64,000 bases of DNA, from NCBI RefSeq assembly GCF_001999965.1, contig NZ_CP019646.1:1054001-1118000 (forward strand). The letters are read 5' to 3'. Of the stretch, positions 3,908 through 30,922 are shown one piece after another. The notes under the pieces were generated by a model, which ran no database searches, had not been told where the DNA came from, and saw only the letters and a program-made list of their open reading frames with translations. Made by a program: the position numbers and the translations under genes. The DNA comes from Limihaloglobus sulfuriphilus. Lineage in GTDB: Bacteria; Planctomycetota; Phycisphaerae; Sedimentisphaerales; Sedimentisphaeraceae. Numbering within the stretch: the first letter of the stretch is position 1; each line of letters starts with the position of its first letter.

Positions 3908-3920
3908 GGTTAAGACTGAG

Positions 3921-4688: not shown

Positions 4689-4722
4689 AATAATCTGCTC
4701 CTGAATAAGTTATGATTATTGT

Positions 4723-6222
4723 TCAGCCCAGAACCTCTCTTACGAATTCTCCGTAACTGGAGATATCTCTGATAATAGGGTGCTCATCTATAAATTCCAT
4801 CTGGAGCTGCCTGTCACCGCCGTGTTTAATAATACTCCTGATGGTCTTCAATCGAAAAGCATTGTGGCTTAACGCTATTTTACATGCATTATCGATTTTG
4901 TTACCTTTATAGGTATTGGTCATATTCAGCAAGCCCAGAAGTACGCGGATACCAGGTATTCCTCTGGCCTCAAGCATCTGCAGGGCCCATCTCTCGGCAT
5001 TGTCACCTATCAGACTGACTCGTTCAAGCATCCATACAACGCCGTTTTCTATCTTTGTTCTTTTCTCTGAATGAATATGTCCGTCCTGAGTCTGGAATCT
5101 GCCCGGCTCAACTTTAGCGTGAACAACAATCTGCTCCATGCTGCGGTTAAATACTCTTACCATATGGCCGTCCCATCTTGCCCATACCTTGCGGCCGGTA
5201 TATTCCGGAGGCACCGAGTAATAGGTCCTCTCTACCTCTATATGGCCGTCCCTGTGAACGGACCGCTGAGCTTCTGTAAATGAAGGAAACCTTCCAACCG
5301 GAAGCCTCAATAAAGCAGGCTTTTCCTGTTCTGTGAACAATTTGCCTACCTGCTTGCGGGTAGTGCCGTGAATACGGGTATCGGCAATACGGCTCTCCCA
5401 GCTGAGAAGAAACTGATTCTGCTCTGAGAGGCTCTTAAAGCTGCGGCCCTTGAGGGCGTTATTTTTGACATATGCTACTGCTTTTTCAACCTTACCCTTG
5501 TGTCTTGGGGTATACGGCTTACAGGGTAAAATGGCGGTACCGTAATGACGGCAGAATGACACTATTTTTGGGTGTATCTCAGGATCATACCAGTCAGCTT
5601 TGTTTACAGCAGCTTTAAGATTATCTATTATCAGTGTTTGCGGAACACCGCCAAAGTGGTGAAAAGCGTTTTCCAGGCAATTTATAAAGTTATCGCCGGT
5701 CTGCCTGAAAACTGCCTCGCTGTAGGATTTACGGGAGAAGCTAAGCACTACCCGTATTACATGAGTTCTTTTTCGTCTGCCATCTTTCGTTATTACCGGT
5801 GCACCCGTACCAAAATCTATCTGAGCCTCTTCACCGGGCCTGCATTCAAGACGCCTGAACGGAACAGGCGAATTTTTACTGAGGCGGTTGACAAACCTGC
5901 GAACGCTGTGGTAGCTGACATCAGAGCCGTGGTCGTCACGAAGATCCTGCCATATACGCCGGCGGCTGAGCCCCATATCCAGCTTGTTCTTAATTATTTC
6001 ACGGTAAGGCTCACAATTGCTTACCGGACCGGTTGAGCTTTGGGCCACCGACCCGGGAGGCGCGTTAGTGACCTGTTTTGAATTATCATTGTCTGATTTT
6101 GCATACTTACGCACCGTATCCAGGTGGATGCCAAGCTCTCTGGATATACGCCTGCAAGACCAGTTACGCTCTCTTAATGTCTGTATTACACTTCTTTTAG
6201 TCATTTTTAGATAGTTCGCCAT
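4723..6222 (-). CDS. istA: IS21 transposase IstA
   Basis: A 499-residue DDE transposase. An N-terminal helix-turn-helix (R-N-W-S-C-R-R-I-S-R-E-L-G-I-H-L-D-T-V) is followed by the rve core: D in E-A-Q-I-D-F-G near residue 134, D in L-I-I-D-N-L-K near 201, and E in H-K-G-K-V-E-K-A near 247. Length and order match IS21-family IstA. It is the first gene of the element and appears intact, so the element may be active. Confidence 0.93.
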   Translation of the reverse strand: MANYLKMTKRSVIQTLRERNWSCRRISRELGIHLDTVRKYAKSDNDNSKQVTNAPPGSVAQSSTGPVSNCEPYREIIKNKLDMGLSRRRIWQDLRDDHGSDVSYHSVRRFVNRLSKNSPVPFRRLECRPGEEAQIDFGTGAPVITKDGRRKRTHVIRVVLSFSRKSYSEAVFRQTGDNFINCLENAFHHFGGVPQTLIIDNLKAAVNKADWYDPEIHPKIVSFCRHYGTAILPCKPYTPRHKGKVEKAVAYVKNNALKGRSFKSLSEQNQFLLSWESRIADTRIHGTTRKQVGKLFTEQEKPALLRLPVGRFPSFTEAQRSVHRDGHIEVERTYYSVPPEYTGRKVWARWDGHMVRVFNRSMEQIVVHAKVEPGRFQTQDGHIHSEKRTKIENGVVWMLERVSLIGDNAERWALQMLEARGIPGIRVLLGLLNMTNTYKGNKIDNACKIALSHNAFRLKTIRSIIKHGGDRQLQMEFIDEHPIIRDISSYGEFVREVLG

Positions 6223-9386: not shown

Positions 9387-9447
9387 TCCGGACTCTTCTT
9401 AATTAACTTTAACATTTCGTAAATAAAAAACTTAGTTGATGATATTC

Positions 9448-10476
9448 TCATTTACCAAAATTATATTCAACGGCTTTACGCATCTCATCCATTACCGCTA
9501 CGGCGTTTTCAATAGGAGTTTCCTGCCTTAAAGGCTTAGCTGTTTCAAGCAGATATCCGCCTCCCTCGCTTAAAATCCGTACTGAATTTCTGATCTCTTC
9601 TCGTGCCTGTTCGGGATTTCCAAAAGGAATTGCACGCTGGGTGCTTATACCGCCTCTAAAAGTCAGATATTTGCCGAAATCCTTTTTGATCTTGACTATA
9701 TCCATTGCCTCAGGCTGAAGGGGATGGAATATTTGCAGGCCGATATCAACATAATCACCCATCAATTCAGTATTATCGCCACAGGAATGCTGTCCGACAA
9801 CTTTACCCGCCGAACGCACCTTTTCATATAACTTTGCATAACGCGGCTTATAAAATTTAAGATAGATATCCCGACTGATCATTAAGCCTTTCTGCCCACC
9901 GAAATCATCACCAAAGGTCACACATTCAACGGGAAGCTCAAGAACCTTATCCAATGCTGCCATATGCATCTCCAGAAGCATATCGAGCGCACCTGAGACA
10001 AATTCAGGGTTTAAGATATAATCCATGTATGTTTGTTCCAGACCGCGGAGACTCCACAACCGCTCGCCAAAGGAACTTGTAAACTGGTAGAAAATGAACT
10101 TATCCGGATTCAGATCTCTTGTCTGGACGATCCTGTCAATTTCACTTTGCGGAACCAGATCAATGACCGGAATCTTCTTTATGTCCGGTTCACTCAAGAG
10201 AGGTTCGGCCATTATGTATCCGCCCTGGTCGTGCCACCGCCAGCTGCATCCAAACATGTCCCTGCATCCCTGTTCTGTCCTGATATAATCTATAGGCCAC
10301 AAAAGTCTTATTATATCATCATCCGGACAATGCCAGTTGATTCGAGGGCCAAGCTCTTTTTCGAGTATCTTTAAAAAGACATCTTCGATATATAAAGTAA
10401 AGGGTATTCTGTCAGGCTCCTGATGGTTTATTGCCGAGATGACACGTTCTTTTGAAGTCATAAAAACACTTCTCAT
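9448..10476 (-). CDS. URO-D superfamily protein 1
   Basis: A 342-residue member of the uroporphyrinogen decarboxylase superfamily, opening with M-T-S-K-E-R-V-I-S-A-I-N-H-Q-E-P-D-R-I-P, the usual N-terminus of the MtaA/CmuA-like branch rather than of HemE. It carries H-S-C-G-D near residue 230, the first part of the H-x-C...C zinc site of corrinoid methyltransferases. The final Cys, expected after G-G-G-Y, is missing (G-G-G-Y-L-L-E-T-A-K). The start could be 10476 or Met-6 at 10461. It lies 70 bases from the upstream sialidase. Substrate unknown; a methyl-transfer or decarboxylation role is family-level inference. Confidence 0.8.
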   Translation of the reverse strand: MRSVFMTSKERVISAINHQEPDRIPFTLYIEDVFLKILEKELGPRINWHCPDDDIIRLLWPIDYIRTEQGCRDMFGCSWRWHDQGGYIMAEPLLSEPDIKKIPVIDLVPQSEIDRIVQTRDLNPDKFIFYQFTSSFGERLWSLRGLEQTYMDYILNPEFVSGALDMLLEMHMAALDKVLELPVECVTFGDDFGGQKGLMISRDIYLKFYKPRYAKLYEKVRSAGKVVGQHSCGDNTELMGDYVDIGLQIFHPLQPEAMDIVKIKKDFGKYLTFRGGISTQRAIPFGNPEQAREEIRNSVRILSEGGGYLLETAKPLRQETPIENAVAVMDEMRKAVEYNFGK

Positions 10477-10544
10477 CGAAAAATTTCCTTTCGAATTGAT
10501 AATTAGAACTTATTTGAATATTTTTGATAAAACACACCCGATTT

Positions 10545-11720
10545 TTAGTTTTGTTGTGCAACAAGTAAACTATACCGTAAACGAGCAAAGATAATTTTTT
10601 CATATTTAGACTTTACTCCGCCCTCATACATACATCCAATATAGCCATCTTCCATATCAACAAGGCAAGAATATGCTGAAGGACCCGAATGTACAAGTAT
10701 GTCACAGGGCCAGGTGTTTCCCTGATCAAAACTAGCCCTCACCGTCATCCTGAATCTCTCTCTATAAACTGCCGATGCCGGATTCGAGAATAATAGTACC
10801 GTTTTGCCCGTCACAGGATCAGCCATAGAAATTGTACTTGCCTGGCAAACAGGTTCGATTAGAACACTCTTATACTCGACTAACGGCCATGTTGTTCCTC
10901 CATCATCGCTGAATGCAATACCTCTTGAACCCTTCCTGCCACTGTTCCGCATATTCAACATGAGCCTGCCTGAGGATAATTCCGCAACCTGACACTCACT
11001 GAAACCAGGTTTAACAGTTTCACTGATTTGCCAGCTCCTGCCATGATCATCACTGTAGATAACATGTGAACCCCCAATAATTTCTCCTTTTTCAATAATT
11101 GAAAAATTACACGGAATTATCAAACGACCTTTAAAAGGGCCTTTTTGCAATTGTATACCAGTTCCCGGACCGGTAGCGTACCATCTCCATGAAGGCAGTT
11201 TGACCTGACCGGTTATATCCTGAGGTTTCGACCACTTGTTTCCATTGTTATCTGAATAAAGCAGGTTTACTCTTCGTGTGTCTTTACTTTTACCGGTTCT
11301 GATAGCACGTCCGTCATCTTCAGCCAGATTAGTTGTGGTAAAAAGAAATATTCTTGAAGTCTCGGAGTCAACAACCGGACATGGATTTCCAATTGTATCC
11401 GCCCCGTTATCTGCTATAATCTTCTGCGAACTCCAGGTCTTTCCGCTATCACGTGATTGTTTTATCAGAATGTCTATGTCACCGGTGTCGCTTCCGCTTT
11501 TTTTTCGGCCTTCACAAAAAGCCAGAAGTGTTCCATCCCCTAAGTAAAGCACAGACGGTATTCTGTAAGTGTGATAACCGCCAACCCCGGAAACAAACAC
11601 ATCGTGATAACTTATATCCTTTGCCAAAACAGTACCCAAGAGGAATAAGACAAAACATAATAATGTCTTTGACCAAAAGTATGAAAACGTATTTCTTATA
11701 TCATCAATATCTTGCAACAT
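10545..11720 (-). CDS. Exo-alpha-sialidase, GH33 (S1)
   Basis: A secreted sialidase. A hydrophobic export segment (F-V-L-F-L-L-G-T-V-L-A) is followed by Y-R-I-P (first catalytic Arg), the acid/base Asp in S-D-T-G-D-I-D, and Asp-boxes such as S-R-D-S-G-K-T-W and S-D-D-G-G-T-T-W. The catalytic Glu is in S-E-C-Q-V-A-E-L, the second Arg in L-N-M-R-N, the third in R-F-R-M-T-V, and the nucleophile Tyr in S-A-Y-S-C-L. All expected catalytic residues are present. The start chosen is the ATG at 11720; an in-frame TTG lies at 11738. The gene overlaps the end of the preceding sulfatase by 17 bases, suggesting translational coupling. Confidence 0.9.
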   Translation of the reverse strand: MLQDIDDIRNTFSYFWSKTLLCFVLFLLGTVLAKDISYHDVFVSGVGGYHTYRIPSVLYLGDGTLLAFCEGRKKSGSDTGDIDILIKQSRDSGKTWSSQKIIADNGADTIGNPCPVVDSETSRIFLFTTTNLAEDDGRAIRTGKSKDTRRVNLLYSDNNGNKWSKPQDITGQVKLPSWRWYATGPGTGIQLQKGPFKGRLIIPCNFSIIEKGEIIGGSHVIYSDDHGRSWQISETVKPGFSECQVAELSSGRLMLNMRNSGRKGSRGIAFSDDGGTTWPLVEYKSVLIEPVCQASTISMADPVTGKTVLLFSNPASAVYRERFRMTVRASFDQGNTWPCDILVHSGPSAYSCLVDMEDGYIGCMYEGGVKSKYEKIIFARLRYSLLVAQQN

Positions 11721-13236
11721 ACTGTGAGCCTGTATCAATAATCTTTACCGTGTAATCATAACTTTTTTCCATTAGTTGATATTTGATTTTCTGATATTCC
11801 GGTTTATCCCAAAGATTCACAAATTCACCAGGGTCATTTTCCATATCAAAGAGCTGTCCCCAGCCGCTGCCGTGGTAGTTTACAAGCTTGTATTTTTTTG
11901 ACCTTATCATCGTCCCATAAGACTCATCGTTGAGAAGCCCCTTAGTGTAAGAACTGTAAGTGAATTCTCTGTGAACATGCGGTTCAGATTTGCCCGTGAG
12001 TAGATCCATAAGTGAAATCCCATGCATCGCGACATCCGGTCTGCCGGAATTCGGAGGCAATATGCCGATAATATCAAGGAGTGTTGGGGTAATATCAACA
12101 AGCTCCACAAGTGCATCACTGATCAGATCCTGAAGGAACATATCCGGCCATGACATTATAAGAGGCACCCTCACAAGTCCCTCATAGAAACGGCATCCCT
12201 TTGCCGTCAGTCCATGATGACCAACCATATTACCGTGATCACTTGTATATATTATAAGTGTATTGTTTCTCTGACCGGTATCTTCCAGCGTTTCTAATAT
12301 CCGCCCAAGATTATCATCTATCAGTTCGACCTGCGCCCAATATTTTGCAAGTTTGAGCCTGGATTTATTTCCTTTGGGTTCTGAACATGTCGATTGAAAA
12401 TATACATCCTTTAATTTTTCATTATCTTCTAAATCAGATTCTTGGAAGCCTGGTAACGGAATGGAATCAATATCAAACCTGTCAATGTACTCTTTGGGCG
12501 GATCCAGCGGCGGGTGAGGATCAAAATAATTCAGGCTGAAAAGCCATGGTCCCTCACGTTTTTCTGTTATAAAATCAATCGCCTTGTCGGTACACCAGGT
12601 AGTCTGGTGTAAATCAGTTGGGTAGTAACCGTTTTTGGCATACAGTTTCTCAGGATCGTGTCCCTTAGAAATCATCCAATCAAAATATTCATTTGATTCG
12701 CTCTCGCCGGGCCTGAAAAGAGGAGCAAGTGAAGAATGAAAAAGCCTGTATCCGTCATCAGGCCTTACTTCAGGTCTGCCTTTGGCGGAAGCTAGATGCA
12801 GTTTGCCGGCAAGGCCGCAGTCATAACCATAATCGGAGAGAATTTTAGTTATAAGAGGTGCGGCATTTTCCCATTTGAGGTTTCCATTTTTTGTTCCTCT
12901 GACAGTTCTGGGATAATAACCTGTCAAAAAACTTGATCGGCTGGGTGTGCAAATAGTTGACTGACAATAGGCATAGTTAAAAGCCACACCGGTTTTTACA
13001 AGCCTGTCAAGGTTTGGAGTCCGAATATATTTATTGCCTAAAGCCCCTATAGTATCGTATCTCTGCTGATCGGTGCATATCCAGAGGATATTGGGAGCTA
13101 TGCTGTCCTGTTTTCTGAGAGCTGAAGGTTCAGCATAATTTGAAGAATGTGATTCAAAAGCTCCTGCTGCGTTATATATGATTGTACTTGACAATATTCC
13201 GGTATATCCGAGCTTGCAGAATTGTCTTCTATCCAT
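11704..13236 (-). CDS. S1-type sulfatase, Tat-exported
   Basis: A 510-residue arylsulfatase-family enzyme. The N-terminus M-D-R-R-Q-F-C-K-L-G looks like a twin-arginine signal. The metal-binding D in W-I-C-T-D-Q-Q-R-Y-D and the formylglycine motif C-T-P-S-R (in I-C-T-P-S-R-S-S-F-L-T-G) are present, as is Y-T-S-D-H-G-N. The Cys must be oxidised to formylglycine by a maturase that is not in the window. Its ribosome site (AAAGGA) lies inside the last codons of the upstream URO-D gene, which it overlaps by 8 bases. Placement between a sialidase and a URO-D gene suggests a sulfated sialoglycan substrate; this is inference. Confidence 0.92.
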   Translation of the reverse strand: MDRRQFCKLGYTGILSSTIIYNAAGAFESHSSNYAEPSALRKQDSIAPNILWICTDQQRYDTIGALGNKYIRTPNLDRLVKTGVAFNYAYCQSTICTPSRSSFLTGYYPRTVRGTKNGNLKWENAAPLITKILSDYGYDCGLAGKLHLASAKGRPEVRPDDGYRLFHSSLAPLFRPGESESNEYFDWMISKGHDPEKLYAKNGYYPTDLHQTTWCTDKAIDFITEKREGPWLFSLNYFDPHPPLDPPKEYIDRFDIDSIPLPGFQESDLEDNEKLKDVYFQSTCSEPKGNKSRLKLAKYWAQVELIDDNLGRILETLEDTGQRNNTLIIYTSDHGNMVGHHGLTAKGCRFYEGLVRVPLIMSWPDMFLQDLISDALVELVDITPTLLDIIGILPPNSGRPDVAMHGISLMDLLTGKSEPHVHREFTYSSYTKGLLNDESYGTMIRSKKYKLVNYHGSGWGQLFDMENDPGEFVNLWDKPEYQKIKYQLMEKSYDYTVKIIDTGSQYVARY

Positions 13237-14356
13237 GATTGGTTCCTTTCATGTAATCTTTTATGACGCTTTTAGCATGTTCAAATGAACTTGCCCTGAA
13301 AATCAGTGAAACGCCCGTCGGCATTTTATCTAAGGCACTGCCAGAAATAAGCTCTTCTTCACTGACAGCAATTCTTGTTAATCCTGCTTTCTTCTGTTTT
13401 GCAATATTGTATAAAACCCAGACATCATTCATTTCTGACTGGCCGTAATCAAAACATCTGATTGATTTCAGATTCAGGTATTCTTTCACGATATTATCTA
13501 CATTTCCACACGAATGAATCCCTCCTGATAAATGTCTTAATATCTTTTCATCGAATGGAGCGATTATTTCCCTGTACATATCCGGGCTAATCATTATTGA
13601 CGTATCAGAACGTATAAGTACTTCACCGGCTATCAAGAAACCATGCTGATGTGAATAACCAGGTATCTTTTCGTTTACATAATGACTGAAATATTTGACC
13701 AGTTTTATCTGGGCACCTGCCAGAATTCGCAGAGACTCTTTAACTTCTTCCCTGCGCAGAGACATATCCAGGAAAACTTCGCTGCCCCTGAGAAGCTCCA
13801 GATTGTCAAACGGGCCCTGTAAATCTGAAAGAGTAACACTCGTAACGCTTTCCAAGCGGGGGTACTCTTTTAATACGTCTCTATAAAATTCATACCTTTG
13901 AGCCGCTTTGGGAATCATTCCAAGGCTATGGTCATCTATGTCAGTATTTTTTATTTGCTCGTAAGATACAGGGCCTTTTCTATGCCTGACCCAGGGAGGA
14001 TTATCACCCTGCCGCTCTATGTTTGCCCCAAAAACTGAAGCTATAAGTACGCAGCCAAAATCGGCCCTGATGCTGAAAGGCAAATCATCTCCAACCTCCA
14101 GACTCAAAAAAGGGCTTTGATCAAAAGTACTTAAGAACTGGTTATAGAGCATCTTTTCAGGATCGTCAAAAACTTCACCGTGCGGGTAAGGTATAAATTT
14201 TTGCTCATCTGGATAAGGATAAGAAGCAATTACGGGCAACCTTTTTAAGTTCTCGTAACTAAGGGCAGACTTATGTAATTGATCTCTCATCAAAAACTCA
14301 TCTACATTAATGTTTTCTTCAAGGTATTTGAGCAGTTCTTTAAGTTCATCAAGCAT
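13229..14356 (-). CDS. URO-D superfamily protein 2 (divergent)
   Basis: A 375-residue protein with weaker but visible URO-D features: S-D-L-Q-G-P-F-D-N in the first half, I-S-P-D-M-Y-R-E-I-I-A-P-F-D-E around residue 260, and G-G-I-H-S-C-G-N near 280. The last is the H-x-C of the zinc site. The third ligand region (S-L-I-F-R-A-S-S) has no Cys. The first 60 residues are an unusual helical extension. It is translationally coupled to the sulfatase downstream. It is clearly a paralogue of the other three URO-D genes in the locus but distant from them. Function unknown. Confidence 0.75.
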   Translation of the reverse strand: MLDELKELLKYLEENINVDEFLMRDQLHKSALSYENLKRLPVIASYPYPDEQKFIPYPHGEVFDDPEKMLYNQFLSTFDQSPFLSLEVGDDLPFSIRADFGCVLIASVFGANIERQGDNPPWVRHRKGPVSYEQIKNTDIDDHSLGMIPKAAQRYEFYRDVLKEYPRLESVTSVTLSDLQGPFDNLELLRGSEVFLDMSLRREEVKESLRILAGAQIKLVKYFSHYVNEKIPGYSHQHGFLIAGEVLIRSDTSIMISPDMYREIIAPFDEKILRHLSGGIHSCGNVDNIVKEYLNLKSIRCFDYGQSEMNDVWVLYNIAKQKKAGLTRIAVSEEELISGSALDKMPTGVSLIFRASSFEHAKSVIKDYMKGTNHG

Positions 14357-14383
14357 TACAGCTAACTTTCAAAAACAATAACT

Positions 14384-15709
14384 TTAATTTTCTTTTAACC
14401 ACTCCCGCAATGCTGCGGTATCCAGACTCCTGGTAACACTGAATATGCCGGCCGGCCCCAGATGCTCGCCGAGGTATACGTAAATCCGCTGCACATTATT
14501 CTTTGTATCTATCACAGAAGCGCCTGGATGCATACCATCAGCCCCGGTAGTCATTGTGCCGGCATGTTTAATAAGGGTACCCTCAAACCGCCATTTTGAT
14601 TTACCCTCTTTAAACTCCCGGGGATCTATGCTCCAGAGATTAAGCGTCATCTGCATCCGCTGCTGTTCTTTACCCTCGCCGCCTCCGCAGCGGTTTGTAC
14701 AAACAGCCTCTATACGATGAGATACAGGATTTAAGTCAAGAGATACTGTATCCTGAGACCACGGGCCGTAACCTTCAATAGGTATCTCATCTGTAATATC
14801 AGTAGTTGTTATATTGGTATAGGCTGGCATAAGCGGCAACCATCCTTCGGGAGAAACGAGCTGTATGTACCTCCATGTCTTAGTTTCAGGCTGAAAGCTG
14901 TCTTTGCCGTGAGCGCGAGCAAGAATGAACAGGGAACCATCATGATAGAGGCCTGTTGGCTCTATCGCGGCGGCCCACTCGGGTATCTTAATAATATGCT
15001 GATGCCAGTTTTCACCGGTATCCCGTGATGTACGAATTGTTATAATCTCTCTGTTTTTATTGTGCGAAAAACTAACCAGACCTTTTTCCGGATGATTTAC
15101 AATCACCGGTCCGTTATTGCATTTATTTCCAGATAATGTCCTTGAAGTATATGAATCAGGAAGATGCCGCCACGAAGCACCTTCGTCTTGTGAACGAAAA
15201 ACACCATAAGCGGTTACAAGGACAACCGTACCGTCATCGGCAGTGCCAATGGAATTCCCAAAAGCAAGCATACAATCTTCGGTTGGAGTTTTGACAAAAG
15301 AACGTATATCTACCGATGAAGTCCAGGTCTTTCCGTAATCGGTTGAACGGGTTACAATTGCCGTTGAGTGAAATTGGTCTTTGTATTTTTTTACTCCAAA
15401 ACGGGGTGTATGCTGAGGGTTTCTGTGATAGACCACAATGATGGTTTCATTAACGAGTACAGCAACAGGCCAGCCGAGATGCCAGTTGTTGCCTTTAAGC
15501 TCATCACCCCAGGGGATTACGACAGGTTCAATCTTGACTAACGCATCAGGGCTTTCATATTTGCCGATGAAAAACCGATGAATACGCACACAACGTTTAA
15601 TAACCTCATCCCTGTTCTGAAAAAAAACGGAATCAGATTCAAATTGAGATTGTTCTGCAATAACATTAAATGCTGCAGAAAAAATAAGGATATAGACAAA
15701 TTTTTTCAT
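14384..15709 (-). CDS. Divergent sialidase-like beta-propeller protein, secreted
   Basis: The start chosen is Met-11 of the longer frame (ATG at 15709), which gives a clean signal peptide (M-K-K-F-V-Y-I-L-I-F-S-A-A-F-N-V-I-A-E). About 440 residues with three good Asp-boxes: R-S-T-D-Y-G-K-T-W, R-S-Q-D-E-G-A-S-W and S-R-D-T-G-E-N-W. It belongs to the sialidase-superfamily propeller fold, but lacks the Y/F-R-I-P motif, the S-D-T-G-D-I-D block and the N-E-S-Q Glu seen in the six true GH33 proteins here. It may cleave a different sugar, such as a modified sialic acid or Kdn-like residue, or only bind. It lies between two URO-D genes. Confidence 0.65.
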   Translation of the reverse strand: MKKFVYILIFSAAFNVIAEQSQFESDSVFFQNRDEVIKRCVRIHRFFIGKYESPDALVKIEPVVIPWGDELKGNNWHLGWPVAVLVNETIIVVYHRNPQHTPRFGVKKYKDQFHSTAIVTRSTDYGKTWTSSVDIRSFVKTPTEDCMLAFGNSIGTADDGTVVLVTAYGVFRSQDEGASWRHLPDSYTSRTLSGNKCNNGPVIVNHPEKGLVSFSHNKNREIITIRTSRDTGENWHQHIIKIPEWAAAIEPTGLYHDGSLFILARAHGKDSFQPETKTWRYIQLVSPEGWLPLMPAYTNITTTDITDEIPIEGYGPWSQDTVSLDLNPVSHRIEAVCTNRCGGGEGKEQQRMQMTLNLWSIDPREFKEGKSKWRFEGTLIKHAGTMTTGADGMHPGASVIDTKNNVQRIYVYLGEHLGPAGIFSVTRSLDTAALREWLKEN

Positions 15710-15729
15710 ATCAGGTTCAACCTTAAAGT

Positions 15730-16872
15730 TTAAATCCATTTATGGAGTTCATCAATCATTGCCATAAAATTTTCGTAATTTGTTCCAACCGCGACCGAAT
15801 GACTTGTACCGAAAATGAACCGCCCGTTAGGGGCAAGCTCAGTCATTACCTTTCTAACTGCATTTCGTACTTCTTTCCTGCTGCCGCCAATTAAAAGCTC
15901 GACAGGAAGGCCGCCCCAGACTGCAAATTTATCGTTGTATCCGGCATAAACCTCTGCTATATCCATTCCGGCTGACTGCTGAACAGACTGATAGCACTCT
16001 ATTCCTGCCTGAACCATTAAATCAAGGATCGGCCAGTTGTTGCCGCACATATGCTTAATAACTCGCTGGTTATGAACTTTAACTGAAGCTACTCGCTGAG
16101 AAAAACCTTCGAGGAACAATTCACCATACATCCGCGGACTGATCATCGGCCCTTTCTGGCTTGCCAGATCGGTGCCCCATAAGACTCCAGACTGACCTCT
16201 GCGGACATAATATTTGTCATGTGCGTTTGCAGATGCCACTTTTGACATATATATTTTTTTAAGCTTTTCAGGCTGCATTGCCATAAACATAAGCCCAGCT
16301 TCCATGCCGCCGGGAAGAAACCAGGCTAACTCGGCAGCTGAGGGGCCAAGGACAAACTTTTCTTCGCCAAACTCAGCAATGAAAGCTTCAACCACCTCGA
16401 AAATGCTCTCATCCGGAGGTGTAATCACGCCGTCCCACATTTCAGCCTGCAGCTCCAGGCTGTCTTCCACGAACGGGCTGCTGATAACCGTAATATCCTT
16501 AGTGGTTGGCGAATAACGGTAAATTTTGCCATCTTTGCCTTGCCATGTTGTTTCATCTATCTGCTTTGGGGACTCAGGTGTGTATCCCTTCGGCGGGCAA
16601 ATGCCGGCAGATTCGCAGCAAACAGGAATAATATCAATAAAATCCAGCTTCTTGTAAAGCTCAATTCCGTCTTCAATCCAGCTTTGGACAACCTCGTCGC
16701 GGCGGCCCTGCCAGAAAGCTATCTGGCTTTTTGCCTTGGCCCGCCAGTATGTCTGCCTGCCGAGAACCCCGGCAGCAGTATCGGAATCAATTGCAAAAAA
16801 ACCGATCGCGGGCCTGTCGGGCAACTGCTTATTAAAAATCATTTCGACACGCTGTTTCGATGTGCAGCTCAT
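15730..16872 (-). CDS. URO-D superfamily protein 3
   Basis: A 380-residue URO-D relative beginning with S-K-Q-R-V-E-M-I-F-N-K-Q-L-P-D-R-P, the family's usual opening helix. I-K-H-M-C-G-N-N near residue 270 supplies the H-x-C part of the putative zinc site. The region where corrinoid methyltransferases have Gly-Cys reads F-G-T-S-H-S-V, so a His takes that place. Its last codons overlap the longer version of the downstream sialidase-like frame. A ribosome site AAGGA precedes the ATG. Substrate unknown. Confidence 0.8.
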   Translation of the reverse strand: MSCTSKQRVEMIFNKQLPDRPAIGFFAIDSDTAAGVLGRQTYWRAKAKSQIAFWQGRRDEVVQSWIEDGIELYKKLDFIDIIPVCCESAGICPPKGYTPESPKQIDETTWQGKDGKIYRYSPTTKDITVISSPFVEDSLELQAEMWDGVITPPDESIFEVVEAFIAEFGEEKFVLGPSAAELAWFLPGGMEAGLMFMAMQPEKLKKIYMSKVASANAHDKYYVRRGQSGVLWGTDLASQKGPMISPRMYGELFLEGFSQRVASVKVHNQRVIKHMCGNNWPILDLMVQAGIECYQSVQQSAGMDIAEVYAGYNDKFAVWGGLPVELLIGGSRKEVRNAVRKVMTELAPNGRFIFGTSHSVAVGTNYENFMAMIDELHKWI

Positions 16873-16905
16873 TGCTGAATCTTTCCTTAAGTAGAGAATT
16901 AGCTT

Positions 16906-19506
16906 CTATTTCGATTTAAATACGGTAAGTCCGGCAATGTCTTTGCGTTTTTCCGGTATTACGAAAGAGAGGACATAGCCGCTTGCAACACAGGCAAGAA
17001 TTCCAATTGCAGCATAAAGCAAAACAGAGACGCCCGTATTTATCTTGACTGTAAATAAAACAATCGCACCAATTAAGGCCCCTGCTATAGCGGAGATGCC
17101 GCCAACCCTCTTAGTGAATATCCCAAGCAGGAACAAACCGCACATTGAACCGCCAAATAAACCAAGTACCGACATAAATGACTCCCAAAGGGATTTAATA
17201 TCTGCACTTGCAAACAACAATGCCAATACAGTGCCAAGAGTACCAAAGAACAGGGTGCAGAAACGGGCAAGATTCAAATAACCTTTTTCCGTCTTTAGTA
17301 ATGAGAAACGCTTAACGAAGTCAGTAACAACAACGGTGGAGATGCTGTTCATGCTTGTTGACACGGTTGACTGGGCCGCGGCAAAAATTCCCGCAACAAC
17401 AAGACCCGATATCCCAATGGGAAGCTCTCGTGCAATGAAAAGCGGAAAAATCGCATCATTCTGGTAGCCGGGGTCAAGCTTGCCGGGATTCATTTTGTAG
17501 AAGACGAACAATGCAGTACCAACACCAAAGAATAAAAGTGATGCAGGAATGATTATCAAAGCGTTAGTCAGTATTGATTTGCGTGCTTTTTTTGTATCTG
17601 AGACGGACATGTACCTCTGAACAACGGCCTGATCGGAAACATAGGGCACAAGGTTCTGCCCAATGCCCCCAATGACCATGACCCAGATCGCAGTTGTCAT
17701 AAAGCTGGTTGAGCTAAAATCCCAGTTAATTGTGTGAAACTTTGCATTTTCATTGGCAATAGCGAAGAATTCTCCAACGCCGCCGTCTATATTTGTAAGT
17801 ATAACCAGAATACTTGCACATGCACCGCCAAGCAAAACAAATGTCTGGATAGAATCTGTCCATATAACCGCTTCAAGCCCGCCCATAGTGCAGTATATCA
17901 CACTCAAAACACCCATAATCAGTATACACTGCTCGACACTGAACGAGGTTATTGTTGAAAGGGCAAGTGCCGGCAGGAACATTACTATAGCCATCCTGCC
18001 GATCTGGAACAGGACAAACGAGAAACTTGCAAACAGCCTTGCAAACACATTAAACCTTCTTTCAAGGTATTCATAGGCACTTGTAGCGTCAATATCCCTG
18101 AAAAATGGCAGAATAAGAAAGATAACAAAGGGAGTAACCGCTATCGCCATCATATTTATTGTAAAGAACGTCCAGTCTGTCGAATAAACTTTAGCAGGAA
18201 TCGCAACAAAGGTGATCGAGCTGAGCATCGTTGCAAAAATACTGAGCCCTGCCGCCCATGCCGGCACCCTTTGGCCGCCCCGGAAAAAATCGTCTGTGTT
18301 CTTATTGCGAGTTGAGAAATATACGCCTACTGCAACCATAGCCAGAAGATATACACAGAGCGTAATAAAATTTACTGCGCCGAATGAATTATCCGTTTCA
18401 TGGAGCTTCCCGCGGAGTATTTCGGGGGTTCGGACTCTTGGTCTGATTTCGCCGCTGACAACGAGATACTCATCATCCCAGTTGAGAGCAACTGAGGTAA
18501 CCGGCGTCTGCGGCATTTCGCCTGCCTTGACCCATGTATCGGTTATTGTATGATAAGCGAAAATATCCTTTGGAAATCCTGGATGGCTGTCTCCTAACTC
18601 GTCCGCTTTAAAGAACAGGCTCCCATCATCACCGCCATACACAAAAATATGGCTCTGGCCAACGGCTGATGCAGTGCCTGCACATAAAGCTCTCGGCGCT
18701 GAGGCACACTGTTTCCAGGAATTGTCAACTATTGAAAATTCGTAAATATCCCTGAGGAATTCTATCCCGCCGTTTTTCTTTTTCCTGCCGCTTATTACAT
18801 ATATACAATCAGTTTTACCGTTATGCTGTGCAACAGTCATATTGAAAGCACGCTGAGGACCCGGCCATGCCGGCAGCTGCTGCCAGGAATAATCAACTCC
18901 GCTGTCTTTTTGAGACAAGTCAAGAGCCCAGAAATTATTCATTGCTGTATCCAGCTCAGAAGAGCTTTGACCGCCGCCTATATATACAATGTTATTAAAA
19001 ACAGCAGCACCTCCATAAGCACATGCTAGCGGCAATGGCGGTAAATATTCTTTGATGACCGACTTAGCTGACCTGTCCCATTTGAGTAGAAAAACATCTG
19101 AGAAGCATCTTTGCCCATCGGCGCCGCCAATACATATAACTCCGTATTCAGTTGTAACACTCATGCCGTAGGCCGCAGGTTTATCAAGTTTAAATCCAGT
19201 ATACCACCGGTAATCAGAATCATTTTTCTCAAGCACCCAAATATCATCGTGCCAAACCTTATCCATACCCCAATAAGGCTTGGGAAAATTAGCTCCGCCG
19301 GCAATAATCAAAGCATCACTGCTGATTCCGGCAAATGGACCGGCCACACCAAGCGGCTCGTCCTGTCCGGCTGCTGCGGGCATTGTTGCCAGTTCATCCC
19401 ATTTGAAAAACTCTCCCTGCTTAGAATTCTGCCCCGGACATGATACAATAAAAGTAAACAGCGAAAGCAGATAAACAAATCTGATGTGACGGTATTTCTT
19501 ATCCAA
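16906..19506 (-). CDS. Kelch mutarotase-like domain fused to sodium:solute symporter (copy 2)
   Basis: An 866-residue fusion like copy 1: N-terminal export signal with a possible lipobox (F-I-V-S-C), Kelch propeller (about 30-370) with G-V-A-G-P-F-A-G and I-I-A-G-G-A-N-F-P, then about 13 membrane helices of the SSS family with V-S-D-Q-A-V-V-Q-R-Y-M. The start is TTG at 19506, supported by AAGGAG six bases upstream (19513-19518). It is closer to copy 3 (locus B) than to copy 1. It sits in the middle of locus A between a sialidase and a URO-D gene. Predicted job: convert the released sialic acid anomer and import it with sodium. Confidence 0.87.
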   Translation of the reverse strand: MDKKYRHIRFVYLLSLFTFIVSCPGQNSKQGEFFKWDELATMPAAAGQDEPLGVAGPFAGISSDALIIAGGANFPKPYWGMDKVWHDDIWVLEKNDSDYRWYTGFKLDKPAAYGMSVTTEYGVICIGGADGQRCFSDVFLLKWDRSAKSVIKEYLPPLPLACAYGGAAVFNNIVYIGGGQSSSELDTAMNNFWALDLSQKDSGVDYSWQQLPAWPGPQRAFNMTVAQHNGKTDCIYVISGRKKKNGGIEFLRDIYEFSIVDNSWKQCASAPRALCAGTASAVGQSHIFVYGGDDGSLFFKADELGDSHPGFPKDIFAYHTITDTWVKAGEMPQTPVTSVALNWDDEYLVVSGEIRPRVRTPEILRGKLHETDNSFGAVNFITLCVYLLAMVAVGVYFSTRNKNTDDFFRGGQRVPAWAAGLSIFATMLSSITFVAIPAKVYSTDWTFFTINMMAIAVTPFVIFLILPFFRDIDATSAYEYLERRFNVFARLFASFSFVLFQIGRMAIVMFLPALALSTITSFSVEQCILIMGVLSVIYCTMGGLEAVIWTDSIQTFVLLGGACASILVILTNIDGGVGEFFAIANENAKFHTINWDFSSTSFMTTAIWVMVIGGIGQNLVPYVSDQAVVQRYMSVSDTKKARKSILTNALIIIPASLLFFGVGTALFVFYKMNPGKLDPGYQNDAIFPLFIARELPIGISGLVVAGIFAAAQSTVSTSMNSISTVVVTDFVKRFSLLKTEKGYLNLARFCTLFFGTLGTVLALLFASADIKSLWESFMSVLGLFGGSMCGLFLLGIFTKRVGGISAIAGALIGAIVLFTVKINTGVSVLLYAAIGILACVASGYVLSFVIPEKRKDIAGLTVFKSK

Positions 19507-19528
19507 ATGAGTCTCCTTAAAAACGAAT

Positions 19529-20662
19529 TTATTCCAGTGATTCGTATTTATCTAAAAGCCAATCGAGTGTGAATACAGCAAGCGTGATCCTCTCATAGTA
19601 TCCATTTTCATAAAAACACGCAACCCTTCCGTCTGCCAGTACTGCGAGACAGGAATATGCAGAAGGTCCGGAATACAGTCTTTTTGAATCCGGCCAGGTC
19701 TTACCTTGGTCACAACTCAGGCGAACAGTCATATTGAGACGTTTATCTGTACTGGCAGCATTTGAAAATAACAAATAACTTTTGGCAGATTTATCGTAAC
19801 GGCGGATACTTGCCTGGCAGATCGGATCAATCAGACTTTGGTCATGCCTGACATCTGACCAGCTCAAACCGCCATCACCACTATAACTGTATGCGCGGTC
19901 TTTCTTTGCACGGTCATAGTTTCGCATATTCAGCATCAACCGTCCATCATCAAGCTCCACGACTTCGCATTCGTTGTACATATCCTGAGGAGTAGAACCA
20001 CCCAGCTTCCAGGTCTTGCCGTGATCGTCCGAATAAATTATATGTGAATAATATTTTTTGGTATCGGCTTCAATGTGGTCACATGGAATCACAAGCCTGC
20101 CTTTATGTTCACCCTTTTTCAACTGGATTCCCGCTCCCGGGCCGGTAGCATACCATGTCCAGTCAGGCTTTTTGACTGATGAAGTGATCTCAACCGGCTC
20201 TGACCAGTTCCGGCCGTCGTCGTCACTATGCATAATCCAGACAGTTCTGGTGCCAATGCCTGTGTCGTCTATAATCTCTTTCTCATTGTCTTCTCCAGGG
20301 TTATGAGTTGACAACAGCCAGATGGTACCCGTTATCTTGTCAACCACAAGACACGGATTACCGCAGGTATTCGGGCCATCATCCCAGATAACCTGCTGCT
20401 CAGACCATGTATCGCCAGCATCAACGGACCTTCGAACCAGCAGGTCAATATCGCCCGTATCCGAACGGCTATTCTTCCTGCCTTCACAAACCGCAATAAC
20501 AGTACCCTTTGTCGAAACTGCAATGGCGGGGATCCGGTATGTGGAATAGCCTTTCTTGCCGCTAACGAAAAGGACTGTCTGCTTAATATCTTCTTTATTC
20601 TCACTTGCAAAACAGCCAGTTAAACCAACAAGAAACATGACATATATTATAATTCTATTCAT
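19529..20662 (-). CDS. Exo-alpha-sialidase, GH33 lipoprotein (S2)
   Basis: 377 residues. The N-terminus ends in L-V-G-L-T-G-C-F-A, a lipobox, so the enzyme is probably anchored to a membrane. Catalytic elements are complete: [31 protein letters not shown] and S-A-Y-S-C-L, with Asp-boxes [16 protein letters not shown] and S-D-D-H-G-K-T-W. Between URO-D 4 upstream and Kelch-symporter copy 2 downstream; the gaps are 14 and 22 bases, consistent with one operon. Confidence 0.92.
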
Positions 20663-20676
20663 AGTCTTGTTAACCT

Positions 20677-21750
20677 TTAATATACGCAGTTTTTACCTTT
20701 CTGATAAAGTGCTTTTATATTTTCCAGCGGTACATCAGTTTGCAAAATGTGGCTTGGAGATAAAATAAAACCGCCGCCTTCACCCAAAATACTGAACATA
20801 TTCTCGACACTATCCGCCACGTCCTGTGGTTTGCACTGAGTAAGGAGATACTGAGTATCTATTGAGCCGTGAAAGCAGAGCCTGTCTCCAAACCCGGCCT
20901 TCAAACTTGACGGTTCCATTCCAGCCGCTGTTACCTGTATGGGGTCGAGAATGTCAACGCCGGCATCGATTATACCGGGAATAAGAGGAGATATCGCACC
21001 GCAAGAGTGAAACATAACCTTAACACCATGACTGTGTGCCATGTCAACTATTCGTGCAATCCTCGGAGCAAATACCACGTTAAATATATCCGGGCTGACG
21101 AGAAGCCTCTCCTGCATTCCAAGATCATCCGCAATCCTTAAAATATCAATTCTGCCTTTTGAAGACGTTATCATCTTATCGAAATAACTTGTATAAAATT
21201 CACTATATTTATCAATAATATATATACCAATCTCGTTATTGAGAGCAACATCCATTAGCAGCGTATCAAGTCCTCTTAGAAAGGATGGATGCTGCCACAC
21301 ACTCGCACCGGTTGCCATTATCGCAAAATCAGACCATTTCTCAAGCCTTTCGCCGAAATCAGTAAAATCAAACCAGTCAACACGCGGCCAGGTGTGGCTC
21401 TGGACATCATCCAGGCTTTCGGCATTCTGGAATAAAAAATCACAAAACATCTCTTCAGGGCCGGTTGGAGTGTCTTTAACCAAGGTTCGCCAACCCCAGT
21501 AATTCTGGACCACTCCGCCTTCTATTTCTTTTTTGAGCGGTACAGGTCCTTTGTAAACCGGTTGTTCGACATCCCGCAGGTCAACTATATCAACGTTGAA
21601 ATACTCTAAGACACTCTTATGGCTGTCAAGTTTGAGTGCATTCTTAATCTTCTCAAGCACCCATCTATTAGCACTGAAATCCATTGGGAGCCTGTCTGCT
21701 TCATGGCAGCTTATGGCGGCTAAGACTCTATCTCTTCGACTCATTGCCAT
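20677..21750 (-). CDS. URO-D superfamily protein 4
   Basis: The frame is open further upstream to 21921, but the family start [22 protein letters not shown] begins at the ATG at 21750 (a second ATG is at 21744), so about 357 residues. The upstream part is the reverse reading of the sialidase end. It has M-F-H-S-C-G near residue 240 and [10 protein letters not shown] near the end, where MtaA-type enzymes have Gly-Cys, so the third zinc ligand would be His if zinc is bound. It overlaps the stop of sialidase S3 by 23 bases. Closest of the four to the MtaA/CmuA branch by eye. Confidence 0.82.
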
Positions 21751-22897
21751 CTTTAAGCCAATCAAGTGTAAAAACCGCCAGTTCAATTCTCTCGTATGGA
21801 TTCTTTTTGCCTGATTCAAAAAAGCAGCATATCCTGTTATCCGGCAAAACTGCCATACACGAATATGCCGAAGGACCCTCGTAAACGGTCTTTGAAACCG
21901 GCCATGTTTTAGCTTCATCAAAGCTCATTTTAACGGTCATTTTAACACGCTGAGTAATACTTTCCGGATTACAGAATAAGATGCAGCTTTTTGTGTTTTG
22001 TTCATTTGGAGAATATCTCAATATCGCCGCCTGACATCTCGGTTCTATAAGATTTGATTTAAACGCAGTATAAGGCCAGCTTTGCCCGCCATTGGTACTG
22101 AAAGCCAGTCCGCGTGAGCCTCTGTACCTATAATTTCGCATATTCATTAGCAGTTTCCCATCAATCAGCTCAACTACCTGAGACTCGTTGAGGCCCGGCA
22201 GTATAGAATCGCTGAGATTCCAGCTCTGACCGTTATCATCGCTGTAGATAACATGCGAGCCGAAAACATTGCCTTCAGGGCCGATATATGAATGATTAGC
22301 CGGAATGACCAGACGTCCTTTGTATAAGCCGTATTCAAGCTGAATCCCGACACCCGGACCGGTAGCATACCATTTCCAGTATTCCTTTTTGGAATCTTTT
22401 GTTATCTCAACCGGTTTTGACCATGTTTTGCCTTCATCGCTTGATTTGAGATAGTAAACGCGGCGTGTATCTTTGCTCTGTCCTTTAAGGATTTCCCGTT
22501 CGTGATCAGAGCCAAGGTTCCACGTTGAAAATAAGAAGATTGTGCCGGTTTTTTTATTTTCGACAAGACACGGGTTGCCGCATGTATTGTTGCCGTCACT
22601 CCATATAAGCTTAGTCTCACTCCATGTTTTTGCGCTATCCTCAGACCGTTTCAAGATAAGGTCAATATCACCCGTATCAGAAACCCCCTCTTTTCGGCCT
22701 TCACACACAGCCAGTACCGTTCCTTTTGAAGTTGCAATAATAGAAGGTATTCTGTAGGTGTCGTATCCGTCCTGGCCGCTCGCAAAAAGAGGTTTTCTAT
22801 TAAAACTGGATGAATCCGCGTAAACAACTGAAATGCAGACACATAAGAAAAATACTAATTTTAATAAATTGAATCCGCTTTTATTAATTGTGTTCAT
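21728..22897 (-). CDS. Exo-alpha-sialidase, GH33 (S3)
   Basis: 389 residues with a signal peptide ending about V-V-Y-A-D. All GH33 elements are present: Y-R-I-P, S-D-T-G-D-I-D, N-E-S-Q-V-V-E-L, M-N-M-R-N, Q-R-V-K-M-T-V, S-A-Y-S-C-M, and Asp-boxes S-S-D-E-G-K-T-W, S-D-D-N-G-Q-S-W and S-T-N-G-G-Q-S-W. The ribosome site GGAG precedes the ATG at 22897 and lies within the end of the NanA-like gene, which it overlaps by 14 bases. Together with S2 it probably arose by duplication, with a URO-D gene between them. Confidence 0.92.
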   Translation of the reverse strand: MNTINKSGFNLLKLVFFLCVCISVVYADSSSFNRKPLFASGQDGYDTYRIPSIIATSKGTVLAVCEGRKEGVSDTGDIDLILKRSEDSAKTWSETKLIWSDGNNTCGNPCLVENKKTGTIFLFSTWNLGSDHEREILKGQSKDTRRVYYLKSSDEGKTWSKPVEITKDSKKEYWKWYATGPGVGIQLEYGLYKGRLVIPANHSYIGPEGNVFGSHVIYSDDNGQSWNLSDSILPGLNESQVVELIDGKLLMNMRNYRYRGSRGLAFSTNGGQSWPYTAFKSNLIEPRCQAAILRYSPNEQNTKSCILFCNPESITQRVKMTVKMSFDEAKTWPVSKTVYEGPSAYSCMAVLPDNRICCFFESGKKNPYERIELAVFTLDWLKDGNESKR

Positions 22898-23813
22898 TGA
22901 GTGCTCCAGAACAAAGGTTTATGATATTTAAAGCATCAATTTGCTTTTTAGATGATTCAGATACCTCTTCCAAAGGTAAAACAGGAATTCCTGAACCTAT
23001 ACCAAGAGATGCAACTCCATACATTATACCGGCAATCCAGTTCTCTGAATTTATAAGAAGTATCTCTCTTATATAATCCGCTCTCTTCTGGGCCTGTTCA
23101 AGCATCTCATTGTCACCGTTTTTAGATGCGTTCCATGCTGCGACAAAAGTCTGCGGCTCATAGTTTGCGCACACAGGAATAATACCTTTTGCGCCGCAAG
23201 AGAGGCCCCAGGCAATATCTGGTTCGTTTCCCTGAAGCAGATCAAACCCGTATTGCAGGGAAATTTCCATAGCCGTTTTGAAGTAAGCCCTGTCACCGCC
23301 GCTTTCCTTCATTGTTGTAAACCACCCTTGAGATGCCATCTGTTCCAGAACACTCAAAGGTATGCTGCTGTAAGTACAGGAGGGTATGTTATAAACTACC
23401 ATGTCCATGCTGGATGCCTGCCTGCACTTATCAAAGTGAGCTAAAAACTCCTGATCTCTTTTGAGTGTATAATAGAAGCTCGGCGTCACTGCCATGTGCT
23501 TAAAACCTGTTTTTTCCAGGACCTTAATCTTCTCAACCGCTCTTCTGGTAGAAGTGCTTATCGCTCCGCCCAACAAAACGCGGTCAGAGTCAACTTCATC
23601 GCTTGCAATTTCCATTGCCCGCTGCCATTGATCATCTGAGAGCAATGGCCCCATGCCCGCACTTCCGCCGGCAAATATCCCGTCAACGCCGGCATCAAGG
23701 CATCGCCTGATTGCGGCTCTAAAGGCAACTTCATCCACATTTTCATTCTGATCAACTGGTGTAATTATTGGGACAATAACCCCATTAACAACTGCATTTT
23801 TATTGTTATTCAT
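22884..23813 (-). CDS. N-acetylneuraminate lyase / dihydrodipicolinate synthase family protein (locus A)
   Basis: A class I pyruvate-dependent aldolase of about 309 residues. Met-7 of the longer frame (ATG at 23813) was chosen because GAAAGG lies six bases before it. The Schiff-base Lys is in T-M-K-E-S-G-G and the catalytic Tyr in V-V-Y-N-I-P-S. The carboxylate-binding loop reads G-G-S-A-G-M instead of the usual G-S-T-G-E, so the Thr and the Glu are missing. In this locus sialic acid cleavage to ManNAc and pyruvate is the obvious role, but a different 2-keto-3-deoxy acid or modified sialic acid is possible. No signal peptide; cytoplasmic. Confidence 0.82.
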   Translation of the reverse strand: MNNNKNAVVNGVIVPIITPVDQNENVDEVAFRAAIRRCLDAGVDGIFAGGSAGMGPLLSDDQWQRAMEIASDEVDSDRVLLGGAISTSTRRAVEKIKVLEKTGFKHMAVTPSFYYTLKRDQEFLAHFDKCRQASSMDMVVYNIPSCTYSSIPLSVLEQMASQGWFTTMKESGGDRAYFKTAMEISLQYGFDLLQGNEPDIAWGLSCGAKGIIPVCANYEPQTFVAAWNASKNGDNEMLEQAQKRADYIREILLINSENWIAGIMYGVASLGIGSGIPVLPLEEVSESSKKQIDALNIINLCSGALNEHN

Positions 23814-23834
23814 TATAACCTTTCGTAGCAAAAT

Positions 23835-29803: not shown

Positions 29804-30922
29804 CTATATCTTTGCTATTGAGGCCCCTGAGAACACATTCAGTTCAACTGGAACACTTTCTGCTTCATTAATATTTAAAGCCCCAGTTCGTATAGAGCAT
29901 AGCATTTGAGCAGCTTTGAGCCCAAGGGCGTACTCGTCAATTACTATCGAACTAATAAACCTTCGGGTGGAAGTACTTCGATGACAGTCGCCAAAGCCCA
30001 CAATAGAGAGATCGCCCGGAACACTGATCCCAAGCCTCTGAGCCAGCCAGTAAAGAACCTCCGCCTCGTTATCATCGCTACAGAATATAGCTGTGGGCCT
30101 GTTGCCCGAAAGCAGAAGGTTTGCCAGGATTTTTTCCCTGTCAACCTCAATCTCCGGCTGATCACCGGCGGGACCGAAAATAATATTAGAATCGGGCATA
30201 TCTATTCCGGCCTCGTTCATTGCCCGACGCAAACCAAGTACGTGCGACTCGGATACTTCATATTTATACACACCGAAATAAGCAATCTTGGTGTGCCCTT
30301 TTTCAAGAAGTATTTCACCAGCCAACCGGCCAACCTTCCTCCTGTCCCACAGCAGAGTGGGGACATTGATGCCTTCAACGCCTCTATGGCACAGCACTAC
30401 CGGGATACCATTATCTATCAAAAGCTGAATCTGATACGCAGGCGTATTTCCGATTGTTGATGGAACAATTGCAACACCGTCTATACCCCTATGCAAGAGT
30501 CTCAAAATAATATTACCCTGTTTATCGACATCGTTATTCGTCTGGCATATAAGAGTCTGCATGCTGTTTAGTGATAATGAATCGTCAAAACCCTGTGTCA
30601 GCGAGGGATAAAGGCTTCGCCTTATACCAGGGACAATCAATCCGAACATTTCATCATTACTGGTCTTATGCGAAGAATCCGGTTCTGCAAGAAAAGTACC
30701 TCTGCCTTTAACACGATATATCATCCCCTCATTTTCAAGCTCGCGGAATGCCTGCCTGACAGTACTACGCGATACGCCGACAGCTTCACACAAGTAATTC
30801 TCACTTGGAATAGCATCCCCTGGCGAATAAGTGCCGCTCGAAAGCTCAGAAATTATATAATCCCTGATCTTCTGCCACTTATGCCCCGCCTTGCTGCCAC
30901 TTGCCAGTTTAATAGTATCCAC
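29804..30922 (-). CDS. GntR/LacI-type hybrid transcription regulator (locus A)
   Basis: 372 residues. An N-terminal GntR winged helix (about 15-80: P-S-E-N-Y-L-C-E-A-V-G-V-S-R-S-T-V-R-Q-A and R-V-K-G-R-G-T-F-L) is joined to a periplasmic-binding-protein-like sugar sensor (about 90-365). This is the AraR-type architecture. The start is GTG at 30922 with AGGA six bases upstream. An operator-like palindrome (30961-30976) covers its own presumed start of transcription, so auto-repression relieved by a sugar is likely. It probably controls locus A, for which it is the first gene. Confidence 0.88.
   Translation of the reverse strand: MDTIKLASGSKAGHKWQKIRDYIISELSSGTYSPGDAIPSENYLCEAVGVSRSTVRQAFRELENEGMIYRVKGRGTFLAEPDSSHKTSNDEMFGLIVPGIRRSLYPSLTQGFDDSLSLNSMQTLICQTNNDVDKQGNIILRLLHRGIDGVAIVPSTIGNTPAYQIQLLIDNGIPVVLCHRGVEGINVPTLLWDRRKVGRLAGEILLEKGHTKIAYFGVYKYEVSESHVLGLRRAMNEAGIDMPDSNIIFGPAGDQPEIEVDREKILANLLLSGNRPTAIFCSDDNEAEVLYWLAQRLGISVPGDLSIVGFGDCHRSTSTRRFISSIVIDEYALGLKAAQMLCSIRTGALNINEAESVPVELNVFSGASIAKI

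What the first reader, a model, noticed from the sequence alone, without database searches (positions are those of the whole stretch)
9448..21750. Four URO-D paralogues interleaved with sialidases
URO-D genes 1-4 alternate with sialidase genes and overlap them or the sulfatase. All keep H-x-C-G, the first part of the zinc site of MtaA/CmuA corrinoid methyltransferases, but lack the distal Cys; two have His there. No corrinoid protein is in the window. They may carry out an unknown step, for example on O-methylated sialic acids.
Basis: partly seen in the sequence, partly recalled or inferred. Interest (0 to 1): 0.6.

Follow-up and report, generated by a model that had tools for sequence, protein, structure and literature searches.

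The report
Sugar-demethylating enzymes in sialic-acid operon
Four enzymes of the vitamin-B12 methyl-transfer superfamily sit inside a sialic-acid-eating operon of a probably anaerobic planctomycete, and the rest of the genome supplies the B12 protein they would need, so they probably strip methyl caps from decorated sugars without oxygen, a step for which no anaerobic enzyme turned up in the papers searched.

Summary
Four intact URO-D-superfamily genes alternate with sialidase, sulfatase and NanM/transporter genes at 9448-21750. All keep H-x-C-G. None has MtaA's distal Cys; two have His there, which HemE also has at that column. No corrinoid protein lies in the window, but the genome has one MtgC/MtbC-like corrinoid protein, two RACo activases and at least 40 URO-D paralogues. 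HemE, MetE and MetH were not found. Operon neighbours of the other paralogues are enriched in sulfatases and SSF transporters. Across 148 genomes of the phylum, multiple URO-D copies go with RACo (16/20 against 29/128). The strongest new result concerns gene 2 (13229-14356), which Pfam misses: it has full-length orthologues in sialic-acid operons of three other genomes, all of which carry the corrinoid protein and RACo. Best reading: corrinoid-dependent O-demethylases (MT1 type) that remove methyl groups from imported O-methylated sialic acids or companion sugars and hand them to one shared corrinoid protein, alongside sulfatases and an acetylesterase that remove other caps. Chemistry, substrate and final methyl acceptor are inferred, not shown.

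The parts
9448..10476 (-). URO-D gene 1 (342 aa), putative corrinoid-dependent methyltransferase; HSCG at 230, Lys at the distal Cys column
   Evidence: Pfam URO-D 63.7 bits; motif and alignment
13229..14356 (-). URO-D gene 2 (375 aa), divergent subfamily below Pfam detection; the conserved member of sialic operons in 4 genomes
   Evidence: no Pfam hit; orthologues at 56/41/42% in L049, L109, L110; UROD/MtaA fold at Z about 15; invariant H-x-C-G
15730..16872 (-). URO-D gene 3 (380 aa); HMCG at 274, distal His
   Evidence: Pfam 69.1 bits; fold match to UROD/MtaA
20677..21750 (-). URO-D gene 4 (357 aa from the ATG at 21750); HSCG, distal His; overlaps sialidase by 23 bp
   Evidence: Pfam 58.9 bits; start analysis
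10545..11738 (-). sialidase (BNR_2/BNR_3, RIP motif, four Asp boxes, N-terminal hydrophobic segment)
11704..13236 (-). formylglycine-type sulfatase (CTPSRS)
14384..15739 (-). BNR/Asp-box protein, sialidase-like but without RIP motif
   Evidence: BNR_2 28.6 bits, below the 31.4 cut-off
16906..19506 (-). N-acetylneuraminate epimerase (NanM) fused to SSF sodium:solute symporter
   Evidence: PF24996 and PF00474
6606..9386 (-). second NanM-SSF fusion, just downstream of URO-D gene 1
   Evidence: 43% identical to 16906-19506
19529..20662 (-). sialidase (RIP motif, five Asp boxes)
21728..22897 (-). sialidase (RIP motif, Asp boxes)
22884..23831 (-). N-acetylneuraminate lyase-type aldolase (DHDPS family)
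   Evidence: PF00701 124.7 bits
23835..25697 (-). sialidase with C-terminal LamG-like and dockerin-like parts
   Evidence: RIP motif and Asp boxes; C-terminal parts read from the sequence
29804..30922 (-). GntR/periplasmic-binding-protein-like regulator upstream of the operon
34969..37170 (-). sialate O-acetylesterase-type protein (GDSL + SASA) in the neighbouring sialic block

Best explanation
The four proteins are cytoplasmic MT1-type members of the URO-D/MtaA/O-demethylase superfamily. Secreted sialidases and sulfatases release sialic acids, which enter through SSF transporters. Inside, the URO-D proteins bind O-methylated sialic acids (for example 8-O-methyl forms known from starfish) or other methylated sugars of the same glycans. 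They transfer the methyl group to Co(I) of one shared corrinoid protein encoded elsewhere (genome 508.6 kb) and kept reduced by RACo. The bare sugar can then be cut by NanA. The final methyl acceptor may be a thiol or folate served by an MtaA-like paralogue with the full Zn site. Shown here: gene content, superfamily and fold, the conserved H-x-C-G, presence of the corrinoid protein and RACo, and conserved operon linkage of gene 2. Inferred: corrinoid dependence, the demethylation reaction, the substrate and the acceptor.
For: Superfamily: Pfam hits; paralogue profile best to MtaA 4ay7 at 8.5e-35 over nearly its whole length, with H-x-C-G aligned; folds of genes 2 and 3 match UROD/MtaA at Z about 14-15 (models of modest confidence). 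The superfamily is published to include O-demethylases MtvB, OdmB, VdmB, MtoB and the dehalogenases CdmB and CmuA (PMC13222342). Machinery: MtgC/MtbC-like corrinoid protein at 206 bits with DLHDIG, and two AcsV/RamA-like activases. No HemE reaches cut-off among the best copies, so heme synthesis is an unlikely role. Co-occurrence of at least 3 URO-D with RACo: 16/20 against 29/128, Fisher P about 1e-6, by family P about 7e-4. Context: neighbours of the other URO-D genes enriched in sulfatases (9/66 against 6/246) and SSF (6/66 against 1/246) (Pfam tally). Gene 2 orthologues in sialic operons of three other genomes, all with the corrinoid protein and RACo. Purifying selection on gene 2 between L109 and L110: dN 0.05, dS 0.32. 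Substrates exist: 8-O-methylated and 8-O-sulfated sialic acids in echinoderms (PMC6994554).
Against: No corrinoid or activase gene lies in the window. The MtaA-type Zn triad is incomplete in all four; gene 2 aligns poorly at the C-terminal site. No classical MT2 was found: the only pterin-binding protein is folP-like and PF01717 finds no MetE. MttB- and MtaB-type MT1 genes were not searched, so another user of the corrinoid protein is not excluded. No cobalamin riboswitch in the loci searched. Phylum co-occurrence is not independent across relatives, and four genomes with several URO-D lack RACo.
Confidence: 0.5

Rival explanations
1. They are corrinoid-dependent demethylases of the same kind, but their substrates are other O-methylated sugars carried by the same sialoglycans (for example 3-O-methylgalactose or 4-O-methyl-GlcNAc of marine invertebrates), with sialic acid itself not demethylated.
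For: Many URO-D paralogues in the genome sit in sulfatase, glycosidase or transporter operons, so the family is broadly sugar-linked. Genes 2, 4 and the pair 1/3 fall in different clades, as expected for several substrates. 3-O-methylgalactose and 4-O-methyl-GlcNAc occur in sea hares (PMC6994554).
Against: Gene 2 is tied to sialic operons in four genomes, and in L110 the operon held little besides NanM-SSF, aldolases and sialidases.
Confidence: 0.25
2. They are enzymes of the methyltransferase fold doing a corrinoid-independent step on sialic acid or its breakdown products, such as a decarboxylation in the manner of HemE or a metal-dependent lyase step.
For: Incomplete Zn triad; HemE-like His at the distal column; the fold also matches HemE at equal Z; no corrinoid gene in the operon.
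Against: H-x-C-G is an MtaA-type feature absent from the HemE chains in the alignment; copy number goes with RACo across the phylum; all gene-2 genomes carry the corrinoid set.
Confidence: 0.15
3. Ordinary uroporphyrinogen decarboxylase or a chance mixture of paralogues with no link to sialic acid.
For: Superfamily name and fold.
Against: No HemE-level score among the best copies; clustering P about 0.006; recurrent operon linkage of gene 2.
Confidence: 0.04

Closest known systems
MtvB/OdmB/VdmB/MtoB O-demethylases of acetogens and archaea (UroD superfamily MT1; PMC13222342, PMC8359953)
   Same: Same superfamily; corrinoid protein and RACo-type activase present in the genome; proposed ether O-demethylation in the absence of oxygen
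   Different: Known substrates are methoxylated aromatics; the MTII that the known O-demethylase and Cdm systems include was not found here; here genes sit in sugar operons, the corrinoid protein is a distant single copy, and sequences are remote
MtaA/MtbA methylcobamide:coenzyme M methyltransferases
   Same: Best profile match; H-x-C-G of the Zn site
   Different: Distal Cys missing; far below family cut-offs (37-51 bits for genes 1, 3, 4 against 235-244); no coenzyme M role expected in a bacterium of this kind (own knowledge)
HemE uroporphyrinogen decarboxylase
   Same: Fold; His at the distal column
   Different: Scores far below HemE cut-off; H-x-C-G where the HemE chains have none; not in a heme context
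P450-based oxidative demethylation of 6-O-methylgalactose in aerobic marine Flavobacteriia (PMC10033563)
   Same: Removes a methyl ether from a polysaccharide sugar, encoded in a sugar-use locus
   Different: A P450 monooxygenase, so oxygen-dependent, releasing formaldehyde; unrelated enzymes
CdmB chloromethane dehalogenase (UroD superfamily)
   Same: Superfamily member without catalytic Zn, showing that Zn loss need not mean loss of corrinoid chemistry
   Different: Acts on haloalkanes; weaker profile match

Membership tests
URO-D superfamily (PF01208) | Profile score over gathering cut-off, genes 1, 3, 4 | tested here: met
   63.7, 69.1, 58.9 against 23.9 bits
URO-D superfamily (PF01208) | Profile score over gathering cut-off, gene 2 | tested here: not met
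   No Pfam family at E 0.001
URO-D superfamily (PF01208) | URO-D TIM-barrel fold, gene 2 | tested here: met
   Best Z 15.0 to UROD, 14.5 to MtaA 4ay7, next unrelated folds about 8; model pLDDT 57, pTM 0.61
HemE (TIGR01464) | Equivalog cut-off 302.95 bits | tested here: not met
   Gene 3 at 20.3 bits, the others not listed
MtaA/CmuA (TIGR01463) | Subfamily cut-off 235.4 bits | tested here: not met
   37.8-40.0 bits for genes 1, 3, 4
MtaA/CmuA | First part of Zn site, H-x-C-G | tested here: met
   All four; aligned to 4ay7 LHICGN in the profile
MtaA/CmuA | Distal Cys of Zn site | tested here: not met
   Lys, unalignable, His, His
Corrinoid methyltransferase system | Corrinoid protein with B12 motif encoded in genome | tested here: met
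   L013:9223-9846, DLHDIG, MtgC_2 206 bits
Corrinoid methyltransferase system | Reductive activase (RACo) | tested here: met
   Two copies, AcsV model 480 and 468 bits
Corrinoid methyltransferase system | MT2 with pterin-binding domain, as in bacterial O-demethylase systems | tested here: not met
   Only a folP-like pterin-binding protein found
O-demethylase (MtvB/OdmB type) | Methyl transfer from an O-methyl ether to Co(I) | not testable with these tools
   Needs an enzyme assay

The most novel reading that the evidence does not exclude
An anaerobic, oxygen-independent route for removing O-methyl groups from sugars: tens of URO-D-type MT1 enzymes, each placed in its own sugar operon, all feed one shared corrinoid protein, with gene 2 a dedicated O-methyl-sialate demethylase, and the methyl group ending in an MtaA-like paralogue that replaces MetH/MetE for methionine.
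Probability: 0.3. Interest if true: 0.85.

Novelty: new variant of a known kind. Interest (0 to 1): 0.6.

Why it matters
O-methyl caps occur on many marine glycans. The sugar demethylation route read here is aerobic (P450); in the paper searches no anaerobic route for sugars turned up, though the library holds only open-licence papers. If right, this gives anaerobic planctomycetes a way to open such glycans and recover one-carbon units, and gives a testable function to a large set of genes that carry the uroporphyrinogen decarboxylase family label.

Tried and rejected
HemE role: rejected on family cut-offs. Recent tandem duplication of the four: rejected, the tree forces at least three changes. 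Cobalamin riboswitch near URO-D, corrinoid or RACo genes: none among Rfam matches over about 427 kb, uninformative for or against. Second PF02607 protein (L010) lacks the DxHxxG motif and scores best with CarH, so it was not counted as a methyl carrier. Profile of the gene-2 family alone finds nothing in the PDB by sequence. Of the 29 NanM-SSF loci found, 28 show no URO-D in the stored flanks; from their names many are from aerobic lineages, which I did not check, and many flanks are short.
Full report
What is there. The window is bases 1,054,001-1,118,000 of a single-contig 3.87 Mb genome. The minus-strand block 6606-25697 reads, from upstream to downstream (high to low coordinates): sialidase 23835-25697, aldolase 22884-23831, sialidase 21728-22897, URO-D4 20677-21750, sialidase 19529-20662, NanM-SSF 16906-19506, URO-D3 15730-16872, BNR protein 14384-15739, URO-D2 13229-14356, sulfatase 11704-13236, sialidase 10545-11738, URO-D1 9448-10476, NanM-SSF 6606-9386. 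Several junctions overlap by 8-23 bp by coordinates, which suggests translational coupling.

The four URO-D proteins. Genes 1, 3 and 4 match Pfam URO-D; gene 2 does not. All have H-x-C-G. In a profile of 36 paralogues aligned to solved chains, this motif falls on the MtaA motif LHICGN, and the distal column is Cys in MtaA but His in HemE. Of the 36, three have Cys there and thirteen His (my count from the alignment). So the His in genes 3 and 4 is a common state in this set. Genes 1-3 show no strong N-terminal hydrophobic segment in a simple hydropathy scan, whereas the sialidases do; I take all four to be cytoplasmic. AlphaFold models of genes 2 and 3, of modest confidence, match UROD and MtaA at Z about 14-15. 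The tree does not group the four together; gene 2 forms a 100/99 clade with L049b, L109 and L110, gene 3 pairs with a paralogue elsewhere in the genome, and no window gene pairs with HemE.

The genome around them. At least 40 URO-D-superfamily genes were seen: 35 by Pfam, gene 2, two more found with gene 2, and two more by a local profile. Only the best-scoring ones and the window's four were scanned with NCBIfam; none reaches HemE. One corrinoid protein of MtgC/MtbC type and two RACo activases are present. The only pterin-binding protein looks like folP and MetE was not found, so the methyl acceptor is open. A paralogue at 1,925,610 fuses an MtaA-like domain to thioredoxin-like domains and lies beside a gene that reads like a CobW-type GTPase, a possible acceptor-side enzyme; this is a lead only.

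Is the link to sugars more than chance? Among operon neighbours of the URO-D genes outside the window, sulfatases are 9 of 66 against 6 of 246 in evenly spaced control stretches, and SSF transporters 6 of 66 against 1 of 246. In the phylum sample, 16 of 20 genomes with three or more URO-D matches have RACo, against 29 of 128 others. Copies are capped in that search and genomes are related, so the P value is a guide.

The sialic link. A scan of 84,980 species genomes with the NanM-SSF fusion returned 29 loci; one, L049 (Planctomycetes bacterium GWF2_41_51), has four URO-D genes beside sialidases, aldolase and NanM-SSF, the second being a 56% identical orthologue of gene 2. Searching 392 genomes of the phylum with gene 2 found full-length relatives in two same-family genomes, again next to NanM-SSF, aldolase and sialidases. 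These two belong to one genus, so they count as about one independent case. All three genomes have the corrinoid protein and RACo, a test that could have refuted the idea and did not. Gene 2 is under purifying selection between the two close species.

Mechanism. The published UroD superfamily includes O-demethylases and haloalkane dehalogenases that pass methyl groups to corrinoid proteins, some without zinc (PMC13222342). Echinoderm sialic acids can be methylated or sulfated at O-8 (PMC6994554), which fits a cluster holding sialidases, sulfatases, a sialate esterase and these genes. I therefore read them as corrinoid-dependent O-demethylases of imported methylated sialic acids or companion sugars. 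The reaction, substrate and acceptor are inferred.

Literature. Searches for anaerobic or corrinoid demethylation of sugars returned aromatic, amine and halomethane systems and the aerobic P450 route; none of the titles and abstracts described this. The library holds open-licence papers only.

Verdict.

Noticed in passing
window 6606-9386, 16906-19506, 32351-34954: Three NanM epimerases fused to SSF transporters in one window; a scan finds relatives of the fusion in planctomycetes, verrucomicrobia and bacteroidetes.
   Followed up: partly
L017:7611-9320: MtaA-like URO-D fused to thioredoxin-like domains, beside a CobW-like gene; distal Cys present but Phe in place of His in H-x-C-G.
   Followed up: no
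L032:6326-10359: Three URO-D-superfamily genes close together with a 2-hydroxyacid dehydrogenase and an HpcH aldolase, a different kind of context.
   Followed up: no
L013:10118-12181: Hydantoinase-type protein (caprolactamase alpha-like) divergent from the corrinoid protein gene, with a tmRNA gene next to it.
   Followed up: no
L109:10557-11483 and L110:10625-11551: A second DHDPS-family gene lies between the gene-2 orthologue and the NanA-type aldolase.
   Followed up: partly
L049:16276-20011: A transposase-like gene and a run of N lie between the second and third URO-D genes of the related sialic cluster.
   Followed up: no
window 381-6222: Several transposase-type ORFs (including IstA/IstB-like, by eye) and a tRNA at 2400-2473 at the left end of the window.
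   Followed up: no
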